From: Verrucomicrobiia bacterium Tous-C4TDCM
GTDB taxonomy: Bacteria; Verrucomicrobiota; Verrucomicrobiia; Verrucomicrobiales; Akkermansiaceae
Assembly (NCBI GenBank): GCA_002304315.1
Contig: NEUO01000018.1
Location: 1 to 38,324, forward strand
DNA: 38,324 nt
Direction: 5' to 3'
The notes beneath the pieces were generated by a model. The model was not told the DNA's origin. It made no database searches and saw nothing but the letters and a program-made list of their open reading frames with translations. Below, in pieces: positions 26,138 through 29,840 of the stretch. Each line of letters starts with the position of its first letter. Within the stretch, counting starts at the first letter, position 1. The position numbers and the translations under genes are program-made.

Positions 26138-28894
26138 TTGAACACCTCGCCCGACATCCACGCCTTCTTCGACGACGAGCTCTGGCACGAGCGCTTCGAC
26201 GACGAGTGCCTGCAAGCCGGCCAGCGCCTCCGGCCGAAGGTCCGCGAGCTCGTCGCCGAGTGGCCCGACGCCGACAGCATCACCCTTCGCGCCGAAGTCG
26301 CCGGCGAGCCCTGCGAAGTCTCCCTCTGGCCCTCCGGTGGCGGCTGGGACTTCGAAAGCACCTGCACCTGCGAGGTCCGCAGCTTCTGCCCCCACGCCGC
26401 CGCCCTGTTAGAAGAAGCTGCCAAACCCAAGAACCTCCCCCGCCTGCTCGATGGCAAACCGGTCCGCACATCATCCCCCGTCCTCCCCGGGACCGTCCCC
26501 GGGACCGCCGGTCATCAGACCGGCTCGGATCCTGCCGACACCCCCCACCTCGAACTCCGCCCGACCTTTCACCTCGACGTCGTCCGCGAGGAAACCTCGT
26601 CGAAGGTCGTCCGCCTCCTCCTCCAGGCCCTCAAGATCCCCGACCTCGGCGACTGGGTCGTCGCCCGTCCGCTCGCCCTCTACGGCGAGCACCGGATTCC
26701 CCTCGGCGGCATCCCCGGCCCGCGCGAACTCCGCCTCGACACCCCGCAAGGCCCGCTCGTGCTGCGCCGCGACATCGCCGCCGAGATGAACGCCATCATG
26801 GCCCTCCAGCAAGCCGGCCTCGCCAGCCTCTCCGGCCATTCGCAGTACCGCTTCCTCCTCGGTCTGGAATCCAGAAATCAACAATCAACAATCAACAATC
26901 GTCAATCGTCCGCCCTCTGGTTCCCCAACCCCGCCCACGGCAACCTCCCCGAGTTCTGGCCCTGGCTCCGCGCCACCGGCGGACCCATCCTTGAAAGCCA
27001 AAACTGGACCGTCGCCTTCGCCCCGGAAGTCGGCCACGAGATCATCGACCTCGATCCCGAAGGCTTCGTCTATCAGCTCGAGGACGACGGCAGCGGCTGG
27101 TTCCACCTCTCGGTCGGCTTCGATGTCGGCGGCAAGCAGCTCGATCTCCTCCCGATCCTCGCCCAGTTGTTAGAGCGCGGCGCGATGGAGTCCTCGCTCG
27201 AATTCCCCGCCGACGGCCACTTCCTCCACCACCTGCCCGACGGCCGCGCCCTGCGCCTCCCCGCCGCCCGCATCCGCCGCATCCTGAAGCAATTTTCCGC
27301 CCTGATCGACCCGCGCCGCTTCAAGGGCTCCAAGCTCAAGCTCCACCCGCTCGACGCCGCCGCCATCGCGACCTCCGAGGAACTTGGCATCCAAGCCCCC
27401 GAACGCCTCGCCGAACTCGCCGCGAAGCTCACCAACTTTGCCGGCATCGAGAAGATTCCGCAGCCCGCCGGCATCCAGGCCCAGCTCCGCGAGTACCAGA
27501 CCACCGGCTTCCACTGGATGCAGTTCCTCGCCCGCCACGAACTCCACGGCATCCTCGCCGACGACATGGGCCTCGGTAAAACCCTGCAAACCATCACCCA
27601 CATCCTCGCCGAAAAAGACAGCGGCCGCTCGCAGGGCAAGCCGGTCCTCGTCGTCGCGCCGACCAGCGTCGTCCCGAACTGGCGCGCCGAAGCCCAGAGG
27701 TTCGCCCCCTCACTGCGTATCCTCATGTTAGACGGCCCGCAGCGGAAAAAATACTTCCGCTCCATCCCCTACGCCGACCTCGTCCTGACCTCCTACGCCC
27801 TGGTCCAGCGCGACATCGACGCGCTCAAAGGCCACCGCTTCCACCTCGCCGTCCTCGACGAGGCGCAGTATATCAAAAACCCCGCCGCCAAGGTCGCGCA
27901 GGCCGCCTGCCAGCTCGATGCCCGCCACCGCCTCTGCCTCTCCGGCACCCCGGTCGAGAACCACCTCGGCGAACTCTGGAGCCTGATGAAGTTCCTGATG
28001 CCCGGCTTCCTCGGCGGCCAGGAAGAGTTCAACCGCCGCTTCCGCAACCCGATCGAAAAAGACGGCGACGAGGACCGCCGGCTCGCCCTCAAGGCCCGCG
28101 TCGCCCCGCTCATCCTCCGCCGCAACAAGACCGAGGTCGCCAAGGAACTGCCGCCGAAGACCATCCTCATCCACCCGGTCGAGCTCAACACCGCGCAGAA
28201 GGACCTCTACGAAACCGTCCGAGCGACGATGGACAAACGGGTCCGCCAGTCGATCGCGATCAAGGGTCTCGAAGGCTCGCGGATGGTCTTCCTCGAAGCC
28301 CTGCTCAAGCTCCGCCAGATCTGCTGCGAGCCGAAGCTGCTGAAGTTCGAGGGTGAATCGAAGCTCGAAGCCGACGCCGCCGGCTCCGCCAAGCTCGACT
28401 ACCTCGCCGACCTGTTGGAGACGCTGATCGAGGAAGGTCGCCGCATCCTGATCTTCTCGCAGTTCACCTCGATGCTCGAAATCATCGAGAAGCTCCTCCA
28501 ACTACGAAAGACACCTTACTTGAAGCTCACCGGCGAATCGAAGAACCGCGGCGAGCTCGTCGAGAAATTCCAGACCGGCAACTTCCCCGTCTTCCTGATC
28601 TCGCTCAAAGCCGGCGGCACCGGCCTCAACCTCACCGCCGCCGACACCGTGATCCACTACGACCCCTGGTGGAACCCCGCCGCCGAGGCCCAGGCCACCG
28701 ACCGCGCCTACCGCATCGGCCAGACCCAGCCGGTCTTCGTCCACAAGCTCATCTGCCAGGGCACCGTCGAGGAACGCATCCACCAGCTCCAGGCCAAGAA
28801 AAGCCAGCTCGCCGACAGCCTCCTCTCCGACGCCGCCCGCGCCGCCGCGCCGGATGAAAGCACGCTGTCCGCGCTGCTCGCGCCGCTGGGGTGA
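26138..28894 (+). CDS. SWIM zinc-finger SNF2-family helicase/ATPase
   Basis: 918 residues from TTG 26138, chosen because the sequence from ATG 26030 looks non-coding and overlaps tilS; the start is uncertain. A SWIM-type zinc site (CTCEVRSFCPHAA) is near residue 75-90. The ATPase has motif I ADDMGLGKTLQT (~475), motif II LDEAQ (~574), SGTPVENHLGELWSL, and motifs V/VI GGTGLNLTAADTVIHYDPWW and AQATDRAYRIGQ. The class translocates on double-stranded DNA and displaces proteins; bacterial examples are linked to transcription recycling and repair. Two repeat-like tracts are translated in frame (26492-26524 and 26875-26910). The gene's last ~170 bp are partly duplicated at 29664. Confidence 0.93.
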   Translation: MNTSPDIHAFFDDELWHERFDDECLQAGQRLRPKVRELVAEWPDADSITLRAEVAGEPCEVSLWPSGGGWDFESTCTCEVRSFCPHAAALLEEAAKPKNLPRLLDGKPVRTSSPVLPGTVPGTAGHQTGSDPADTPHLELRPTFHLDVVREETSSKVVRLLLQALKIPDLGDWVVARPLALYGEHRIPLGGIPGPRELRLDTPQGPLVLRRDIAAEMNAIMALQQAGLASLSGHSQYRFLLGLESRNQQSTINNRQSSALWFPNPAHGNLPEFWPWLRATGGPILESQNWTVAFAPEVGHEIIDLDPEGFVYQLEDDGSGWFHLSVGFDVGGKQLDLLPILAQLLERGAMESSLEFPADGHFLHHLPDGRALRLPAARIRRILKQFSALIDPRRFKGSKLKLHPLDAAAIATSEELGIQAPERLAELAAKLTNFAGIEKIPQPAGIQAQLREYQTTGFHWMQFLARHELHGILADDMGLGKTLQTITHILAEKDSGRSQGKPVLVVAPTSVVPNWRAEAQRFAPSLRILMLDGPQRKKYFRSIPYADLVLTSYALVQRDIDALKGHRFHLAVLDEAQYIKNPAAKVAQAACQLDARHRLCLSGTPVENHLGELWSLMKFLMPGFLGGQEEFNRRFRNPIEKDGDEDRRLALKARVAPLILRRNKTEVAKELPPKTILIHPVELNTAQKDLYETVRATMDKRVRQSIAIKGLEGSRMVFLEALLKLRQICCEPKLLKFEGESKLEADAAGSAKLDYLADLLETLIEEGRRILIFSQFTSMLEIIEKLLQLRKTPYLKLTGESKNRGELVEKFQTGNFPVFLISLKAGGTGLNLTAADTVIHYDPWWNPAAEAQATDRAYRIGQTQPVFVHKLICQGTVEERIHQLQAKKSQLADSLLSDAARAAAPDESTLSALLAPLG
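26492..26524. repeat. Intragenic GC repeat and GCCGGTC hairpin within the SNF2 gene
   Basis: CCCCGGGACCG occurs twice in tandem and leads into GCCGGTC-ATCA-GACCGGC (26507-26524). The same hairpin arms occur between genes at 24843. It encodes the low-complexity GTVPGTAGHQTG between the SWIM segment and the next domain. Confidence 0.7.
26875..26910. repeat. AATCAAC tandem repeat within the SNF2 gene
   Basis: Three AATCAAC units followed by two AATCGTC-like units are translated as NQQSTINNRQSS. This polar insert interrupts sequence that looks well conserved on both sides (RFLLGLES and ALWFPNPAHGN). The unit matches the inverted repeat at 5767-5875. Confidence 0.8.
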
Positions 28895-28927
28895 AGTGTC
28901 GTCTCACACGGCCGTGCGGTCCGGCGT

Positions 28928-29350
28928 TCAGCGCGTGTTCGCGGTTCTGACTCCGGGGTAGTCGAGCAGCACTTGATCCGAGGTGAGGAGGGTGAGGTCG
29001 TGGTGCCGGGCGGTGGCGACGATGATCAGATCCATGGGATCCTTGTGGACGTTTCCCTGGCGGTTGACGAATGGCTGGGGGAGCCGGGTGGCATCGACGG
29101 CAATCGGAGGAGAGACATCGAGGAGAATGATTTTCCCTTTGGGCAGCGCGATGCGCTCGAACCACTCGGCGCAAGGCATGGAGATGCTGATGTCGCCGCG
29201 CACTTCTTTTCTCGCGAACTCGATCAGGCTGACGGAACAGAGATGAAGCGGGGTCTTGCTCGCGATGATCTTGCGGACGGACTGTCGCAGCTTCTCGGGA
29301 GCGAGGAGGGCATCGATCCAAGCACAGGTATCGAGGAGGTAACCGGGCAT
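28928..29350 (-). CDS. vapC: PIN-domain ribonuclease toxin (VapC-like)
   Basis: 140 residues from ATG 29350 (MPGYLLDTCAWIDALL). The acidic residues of PIN nucleases are seen in LLDTCAWID, SLIEFARKE and HKDPMDLIIVATARHHDLTLLTSDQ. Such toxins cleave tRNA or rRNA when not bound by antitoxin. The gene starts 5 nt after the antitoxin stop, so the two form one operon. It ends 33 bp from the helicase stop, on the opposite strand. Confidence 0.88.
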   Translation of the reverse strand: MPGYLLDTCAWIDALLAPEKLRQSVRKIIASKTPLHLCSVSLIEFARKEVRGDISISMPCAEWFERIALPKGKIILLDVSPPIAVDATRLPQPFVNRQGNVHKDPMDLIIVATARHHDLTLLTSDQVLLDYPGVRTANTR

Positions 29351-29355
29351 GGATT

Positions 29356-29604: not shown

Positions 29605-29611
29605 GAGATGA

Positions 29612-29640
29612 TGCATAATTTGATCAGAAAAATGGTCAAA
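29612..29640 (-). promoter_or_regulatory. Promoter and operator of the toxin-antitoxin operon
   Basis: On the minus strand TTTGAC (29635-29640) is exactly 17 bp from TATGCA (29612-29617), a near-consensus sigma-70 layout and unusually clear for this window. TTTGA and TCAAA form inverted arms in the spacer, a likely antitoxin-binding site. The predicted start of transcription, near 29605, coincides with the antitoxin ATG, suggesting a leaderless mRNA. Confidence 0.65.
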
Positions 29641-29663
29641 TTCAAAATCGCGGCCAGCGTTTG

Positions 29664-29840
29664 CGTTTCGGCCAGCCGGTCTTCCTCCACAAGCTCATCT
29701 GCCAGGGCACCGTCGAGGAGCGCATCCACCCCCTCCAGGCCAAGAAAAGCCAGCTCGCCGACAGCCTCCTCTCCGATGACGCCCGGGCTGCGGGCAAGCC
29801 GGTTCAAGGAGTTACCGAAAAGTCTCCAGAGCATGGTTGA
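29664..29840 (+). pseudogene. Fragment of a SNF2 helicase 3' end (second copy)
   Basis: Positions 29673-29786 match 28727-28840 of the intact helicase gene at 107 of 114 bases by my count, with no gap. Just upstream the match continues (RFGQPV against RIGQTQPV) with two codons missing. The frame reads QPVFLHKLICQGTVEER and then IHPLQAKKSQLADSLLSDDA, diverges, and ends at TGA 29838-29840. It has no start and lacks all ATPase motifs, so it is a remnant. With the intact copy it brackets the toxin-antitoxin operon as direct repeats 946 bp apart. Confidence 0.88.

What the first reader, a model, noticed from the sequence alone, without database searches (positions are those of the whole stretch)
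28727..29786. Toxin-antitoxin operon bracketed by two copies of the SNF2 helicase 3' end
Seen: 28727-28840 (inside the helicase gene) and 29673-29786 agree at 107 of 114 bases in the same orientation, and the PIN/Phd operon lies between them on the other strand. Inference: the module entered the helicase 3' end, either by an integration that kept the gene intact and left a displaced old 3' end, or by insertion into a tandem duplication. This layout resembles integration that restores the target gene, but with a helicase gene as target.
Basis: partly seen in the sequence, partly recalled or inferred. Interest (0 to 1): 0.75.

Follow-up and report, generated by a model that had tools for sequence, protein, structure and literature searches.

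The report
Toxin genes stacked behind a helicase
Behind one helicase gene, bacteria of this group have repeatedly taken in small toxin or defence genes, and each arrival pushed a broken-off copy of the helicase gene's old tail downstream, leaving a visible record of gene uptake without any mobile-element enzyme.

Summary
A congener (G008) has the predicted empty site: one helicase 3' end followed directly by the flanking genes. No congener has two full helicases. A second congener (G006) carries the same arrangement, extended to four helicase 3' ends alternating with DinD, GNAT/TacA, PIN/Phd and Fic; identity to the helicase falls 97, 90, 85% with distance. Truncated helicase 3' ends recur behind the helicase in six more genomes, and in 7 of 103 helicase-family genes against 1 of 359 other genes tested the same way. 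The 5' edges of the copies scatter (-305 to -34) and most copies reach the stop codon. The freshest copies differ from the resident helicase almost only at third codon positions, as alleles do. Best reading: incoming DNA from relatives pairs by homology in the helicase gene, brings its own helicase tail plus cargo, and displaces the old tail. An integrase is unlikely. Nearest known: sequential displacement in Vibrio T6SS immunity arrays.

The parts
26030..28894 (+). SNF2-type helicase, 954 aa, intact; left anchor of the locus
   Evidence: Pfam SNF2-rel_dom and Helicase_C; orthologues in all 17 congeners
28726..28845 (+). helicase 3' segment matched by the downstream copy
28928..29374 (-). PIN-domain (VapC-like) putative toxin, 148 aa; acidic residues in LLDTC, LIEFAR, DPMD and TSDQ
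   Evidence: Pfam PIN 50.9 bits; dN/dS 0.20 against G006; translation
29356..29616 (-). Phd/YefM-type putative antitoxin, 86 aa (start may be the internal ATG, MNVRQ...)
   Evidence: TIGR01552 20.9 bits against a cut-off of 20.8; Pfam 24.2 bits, below its cut-off of 29.8; dN/dS 0.23
29617..29642 (.). palindrome AATTTGATCA-GAAAAA-TGGTCAAATT upstream of the antitoxin, probable operator; G006 has AAATTGATCA-GAAAAA-TGATCAATTT, with matched changes in both arms
29672..29791 (+). displaced helicase 3' end (helicase positions -168 to -49 from the stop); non-coding remnant
   Evidence: 17% diverged from its orthologue in G006, while the helicase segment (W against G006 copy B) differs at 1 of 120 sites
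29838..29911 (.). two inverted repeats (TGAGCCGATT...AATCGGCTCA and GAGCCGA...TCGGCTC) just before the Fic start, probable operators; conserved in G006
   Evidence: I3; z -4.8
29911..31017 (+). Fic-domain protein (HPFEDGNGRLGR; SoFic-like) with N-terminal DUF4172; another cargo gene absent from the empty site
   Evidence: dN/dS 0.15
31024..31839 (-). GNAT-family gene; directly abuts the helicase stop in G008 (empty site); its annotated ORF runs to 32091 but overlaps the next gene
31840..33102 (+). oxidoreductase (GFO/IDH/MocA family); right anchor of the variable interval shared by W, G006, G007, G008, G009 and G012
   Evidence: family name inferred from protein features and the GFO/IDH/MocA matches among helicase-downstream genes

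Best explanation
The 3' flank of this SNF2 helicase gene is a recurrent entry site for small toxin-antitoxin and defence genes. DNA from a related cell that carries 'helicase 3' part + cargo' pairs with the resident helicase gene (homologous end). The other end joins illegitimately inside the resident gene's 3' part. The helicase stays whole, because its tail now comes from the incoming DNA. The old tail is pushed downstream of the cargo, keeps its old neighbours, and decays. Repeating this stacks cargo next to the helicase, youngest nearest, as seen in G006. In the window the PIN/Phd operon is one such cargo, and 29672-29791 is the tail it displaced shortly before this lineage split from G006. 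The tail's last 49 bases were later lost at the join to the Fic cargo. Shown: the copies, the empty site, the array, the identity gradient, scattered 5' edges and allele-like differences in the freshest copies. Inferred: the uptake route, the illegitimate join, and that PIN/Phd works as a toxin-antitoxin pair.
For: Empty site in G008 (94% identical helicase): helicase stop directly followed by the GNAT and oxidoreductase genes. Same two flanks, six different contents: G008 none, G009 a lone Phd, G007 GNAT/TacA and others, G012 an antiphage NACHT protein (HyoA) and a Fic gene, W, and G006. G006 array: tail copies 97%, 90% and 85% identical to the W helicase with increasing distance. Copy C is followed by PIN/Phd as the intact helicase is in W, so it is the old tail in its old context. 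Freshest copies against the resident or nearest end: 24 of 28 differences at third codon positions, against about half expected for local duplication plus decay, p 9e-5, subset chosen after seeing the data. Enrichment at this gene: 7/103 against 1/359, p 1.5e-4. W and G006 fragments differ at 20 of 120 sites and share about 3 changes from the helicase. PIN gene acquired by transfer: found in 2 of 17 congeners, one of them only 33% identical, yet 84% identical in G193 of another genus whose helicase is 56% identical. ComEC and DprA in 18/18 genomes, which does not discriminate.
Against: No donor and recipient pair was found that shows an insertion joint with microhomology. Most congeners with other cargo show no displaced tail. 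Three 5' edges lie close together (-161, -165, -170), which random joins would not favour. G001 and G016 share an ATPase cargo and the position of the tail copy, yet each copy matches its own helicase; simple displacement followed by neutral decay does not give that. Over all copies, 46 of 78 differences are at third positions, not clearly above one half (p 0.07).
Confidence: 0.62

Rival explanations
1. Site-specific integration by a tyrosine or serine recombinase acting in trans: each cassette is a tiny mobilisable element that carries the helicase 3' end as its attachment site and restores the gene, as islands do at tRNA genes.
For: The layout (gene intact, displaced 3' end, tandem accretion) is the same. 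Three 5' edges fall within 10 nt. G007 has a 189-aa ORF next to the helicase that reads, by eye only, like a recombinase core-binding domain.
Against: 5' edges scatter over -305, -170, -165, -161, -135, -103, -83, -47, -45, -44 and -34. The window's cassette holds only PIN and Phd; no sampled cargo protein gave an integrase match; the G007 ORF has no Pfam or PADLOC match.
Confidence: 0.1
2. Local event: the helicase 3' end was duplicated in place (or duplicated as a long target-site duplication during insertion), and cargo went between the copies.
For: In G001 and G016 the same ATPase cargo is followed by a copy of each genome's own tail. Copy C in G006 has a diverged 5' part and a fresh 3' part (13 changes in 56 nt, 5 in 110 nt, cut point chosen by eye).
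Against: Copies that reach the gene end stop at the stop codon, whereas duplications could run past it. The freshest copies differ from the resident end almost only at third positions.
Confidence: 0.13
3. After a first displacement, the two helicase tails make the cassette exchangeable by ordinary homologous recombination alone, so cassettes are gained, lost and swapped, and the tail copies are homogenised.
For: Mosaic copy C; shared ATPase-tail junction in G001 and G016 with species-specific tails; G008 without the cassette; GNAT/TacA behind the helicase in both G007 and G006.
Against: Repeats of 45-120 nt recombine poorly. The W fragment and G006 copy D are not homogenised with the helicase. 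It needs a founding event of another kind.
Confidence: 0.12

Closest known systems
Immunity-gene arrays of Vibrio cholerae T6SS clusters, sequential displacement (Kirchberger 2017, PMC5361080)
   Same: Constant upstream gene part as anchor, new module inserted, old 3' part and its neighbour pushed downstream, repeated to give arrays; homology-facilitated illegitimate recombination proposed
   Different: There the displaced part belongs to the effector gene itself and cargo and anchor work together. Here the anchor is a helicase gene with no known link to the cargo, its function is kept by replacing its tail, and cargo types are unrelated
Hotspots of gene acquisition without mobile elements, flanked by core genes (Oliveira 2017, PMC5635113)
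   Same: Fixed flanking genes, fast-changing defence-type content, no integrase, homologous recombination in flanking genes proposed
   Different: That proposal is double homologous recombination, which leaves no displaced gene ends; here displaced 3' ends mark single insertions and their order
Tandem accretion of genomic islands at tRNA or protein gene 3' ends by site-specific integrases (general knowledge)
   Same: Restored gene, displaced 3' end, tandem stacking
   Different: No integrase, cargo about 1 kb, no constant crossover point
Rhs loci with strings of orphan 3' ends (cited in PMC5361080)
   Same: Displaced 3' gene ends as record of past states
   Different: Rhs 3' ends are toxin domains under selection; here they are decaying remnants of a conserved tail

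Membership tests
Displacement arrays by one-sided homology (Kirchberger type) | Homologous anchor gene kept intact, non-homologous cargo behind it | tested here: met
Displacement arrays by one-sided homology (Kirchberger type) | Displaced old 3' end in its old downstream context | tested here: met
   G006 copy C followed by PIN/Phd as the intact helicase is in W
Displacement arrays by one-sided homology (Kirchberger type) | Older copies further from the anchor | tested here: met
   97, 90 and 85% in G006; one array only
Displacement arrays by one-sided homology (Kirchberger type) | Resident tail comes from another strain | tested here: inconclusive
   24 of 28 differences at third positions in the freshest copies, 46 of 78 over all
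Displacement arrays by one-sided homology (Kirchberger type) | Short microhomology at the illegitimate joint | not testable with these tools
   needs donor and recipient haplotypes of one species
Integrase-driven island at a gene 3' end | Recombinase gene in the element | tested here: not met
   window cassette holds PIN and Phd only; no integrase match in the sampled cargo
Integrase-driven island at a gene 3' end | Constant crossover point | tested here: not met
   5' edges from -305 to -34
Integrase-driven island at a gene 3' end | Empty site in relatives | tested here: met
   G008
Integron cassette array | attC sites and IntI | not tested
   cargo genes lie on both strands
PIN/Phd type II toxin-antitoxin | PIN toxin gene overlapping an upstream Phd-type antitoxin | tested here: met
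   (Phd score only just at the NCBIfam cut-off, below Pfam's)
PIN/Phd type II toxin-antitoxin | Palindromic operator at the antitoxin start | tested here: met
   palindrome conserved with matched changes in both arms in G006
PIN/Phd type II toxin-antitoxin | Toxicity and neutralisation | not testable with these tools
   needs expression

The most novel reading that the evidence does not exclude
A recombinase-free cassette system: the helicase 3' end works as a renewable landing pad. Each insertion leaves a second tail, and the paired tails then let toxin and defence cassettes be exchanged, lost and stacked by ordinary recombination while the gene is always rebuilt.
Probability: 0.17. Interest if true: 0.7.

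Novelty: new variant of a known kind. Interest (0 to 1): 0.5.

Why it matters
Many hotspots of gene uptake lack any mobile-element enzyme, and how genes enter them is usually invisible. Here the displaced helicase tails record single insertions, their order and their borders, so the one-sided homology route can be tested on natural loci. It also gives a simple marker (truncated 3' ends of a neighbouring core gene) for finding such events elsewhere.

Tried and rejected
Plain deletion remnant between two full helicases: no congener has two. Paralogue as source of the fragment: the C68 paralogue matches less well (88% over 93 nt). Repeat as a general habit of these genomes: 1 of 359 other genes. 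Family-wide defence hotspot: the first ORFs behind 100 helicases are mostly ordinary genes and only slightly richer in PADLOC matches than ORFs 3.5-5.2 kb away, so the defence bias is confined to this genus and to the bracketed cargo. Phage or plasmid carriage: no phage or plasmid record covers most of the locus, and no viral contig encodes the PIN relative. Weak extra fragments in other congeners: nothing above noise, near or far. Competence genes: present everywhere, but also in E. coli, so uninformative. A first attempt at the alignment statistics failed for a script error and was redone.

Full report
Observation. The repeat is real and exactly as described: 107 of 114 bases, 120 nt at 93% with E about 7e-47. 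The upstream copy is the last part of an intact 954-aa SNF2-type helicase gene (26030-28894). Between the copies, on the other strand, lie a PIN gene and a Phd-type gene that overlap. A Fic gene, a GNAT-family gene and an oxidoreductase gene follow.

Relatives. The window belongs to a draft genome (206 contigs, 72% complete) of a genus that includes Haloferula rosea; this is inferred from a shared contig length, since G014:C66 has 266,779 bases like NZ_JAENII010000006. All 17 congeners have the helicase. In G008 (94% identical helicase) the helicase stop is followed at once by the GNAT gene and the oxidoreductase: an empty site with one 3' end. Six genomes share the helicase and oxidoreductase flanks but differ in what lies between, from 0.4 kb (G009) to 7.2 kb (G012). 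Contents include a lone Phd, GNAT/TacA with a VapC-like PIN gene, HyoA NACHT antiphage protein with a Fic gene, PIN/Phd plus Fic, and the G006 array.

The array. G006:C266 reads, from the helicase side: tail copy A (at the contig edge), a remnant of the PIN gene end, DinD, tail copy B (302 nt), GNAT and TacA, tail copy C (162 nt), PIN/Phd, tail copy D (122 nt), Fic, GNAT gene, oxidoreductase. Identity to the window's helicase falls from 97 (B) to 90 (C) to 85% (D). Copy C is followed by the PIN/Phd pair just as the intact helicase is in the window. It is therefore the old gene end in its old place. Copy D is the orthologue of the window's fragment, with the same Fic flank. The middle part of the G006 helicase is not in its assembly, so whether copy A belongs to the intact gene is not proven.

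Other genomes. Testing each helicase end against its own downstream DNA gave truncated copies in W, G016 (two), G001 (one firm, one weaker), G029, G264, G217 and G185. The cargo in front of them is DUF4143 ATPase (G001; a pseudogene in G016), NYN (G029), an HTH-repeat protein (G264), decayed DNA (G217) and PIN (G185). The same test on 359 other genes of these loci gave one weak hit besides full tandem paralogues, against 7 of 103 helicase-family genes (p 1.5e-4). One further helicase positive (L134) was a full tandem paralogue and was left out.

Mechanism. The 5' edges of the copies scatter from -305 to -34 and most copies run to the stop codon. That is what a displaced tail gives: homology between old and new tail must end where the downstream DNA differs, while the other joint can be anywhere. 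A site-specific recombinase would fix that joint. The freshest copies (G006 B and C against A, G264, G185) differ from the resident end at third codon positions in 24 of 28 cases (p 9e-5 against one half; subset chosen after seeing the data); over all copies it is 46 of 78 (p 0.07 against one half). Old copies such as D show no codon bias (6 of 18). So fresh copies look like alleles from another strain, old ones like decayed remnants. The window's fragment and copy D differ at 20 of 120 sites, while the same helicase stretch in the window and in G006 copy B differs at one. The shared changes number about three, so the displacement happened shortly before the two lineages parted.

Cargo. PIN, Phd and Fic are under purifying selection between the window and G006 (dN/dS 0.20, 0.23, 0.15). 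The Phd start carries a palindrome that has changed in both arms and stayed a palindrome in G006. PIN relatives occur in only 2 of 17 congeners (G006; G017 at 33%), yet are 84% identical in G193 of another genus, whose helicase is 56% identical. In G193 the pair sits between a PLD/helicase-like gene and a large gene that I read as methylase-like (by eye). In G094 a PIN/Phd pair sits directly behind the same helicase in the other orientation. The pair therefore moves between species and has reached this site more than once.

Open points. Three 5' edges lie within 10 nt (-161, -165, -170). G001 and G016 share an ATPase cargo and a tail copy starting 8-11 nt after it, yet each copy resembles its own genome's tail and the two tails hardly align. 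Copy C has a diverged 5' part and a fresh 3' part (13 changes in 56 nt, 5 in 110 nt, cut chosen by eye). Both suggest that tail copies still recombine with the resident gene. W frag, copy D and the G016 copy also share a Q-to-P change that I cannot explain.

Known context. Kirchberger 2017 (PMC5361080) describes sequential displacement of T6SS effector genes with the same logic and proposes homology-facilitated illegitimate recombination. Oliveira 2017 (PMC5635113) shows that many hotspots lack mobile elements and proposes double homologous recombination in flanking core genes. The present locus joins the two: a helicase gene as anchor, unrelated toxin and defence cargo, and fossil gene tails that record the order of events. 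I call it a new variant of a known kind.

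Noticed in passing
L163 (G006:C266) 4858-5735 and L122 (G007) 5961-6817: The GNAT toxin-like gene and the TacA/DUF1778 antitoxin-like gene are convergent (tail to tail) in both species, at 86 and 81% protein identity; from general knowledge such pairs are usually one co-directional operon.
   Followed up: no
window 29838-29911: Two inverted repeats with the shared arm GAGCCGA just before the Fic start, conserved in G006; probable operators for autoregulation by the Fic protein's C-terminal winged-helix-like region.
   Followed up: partly
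L131 (G001) and L130 (G016), downstream of the helicase: Same DUF4143 ATPase cargo with a helicase tail copy 8-11 nt after its stop, but each tail copy matches its own genome's helicase; suggests gene conversion or repeated insertion at one point.
   Followed up: partly
window 29731-29733, with G006 copy D and the G016 copy: Displaced fragments in distant species share a Q-to-P change (HQLQ to HPLQ) absent from the intact helicases compared.
   Followed up: no
L122 (G007) 5367-5936: 189-aa ORF next to the helicase that resembles, by eye only, a tyrosine recombinase core-binding domain without the catalytic part; no Pfam or PADLOC match.
   Followed up: partly
L124 (G012) 7816-12255: A full-length match to NACHT antiphage protein HyoA (NF058534, 1575 bits) directly behind the helicase.
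   Followed up: no
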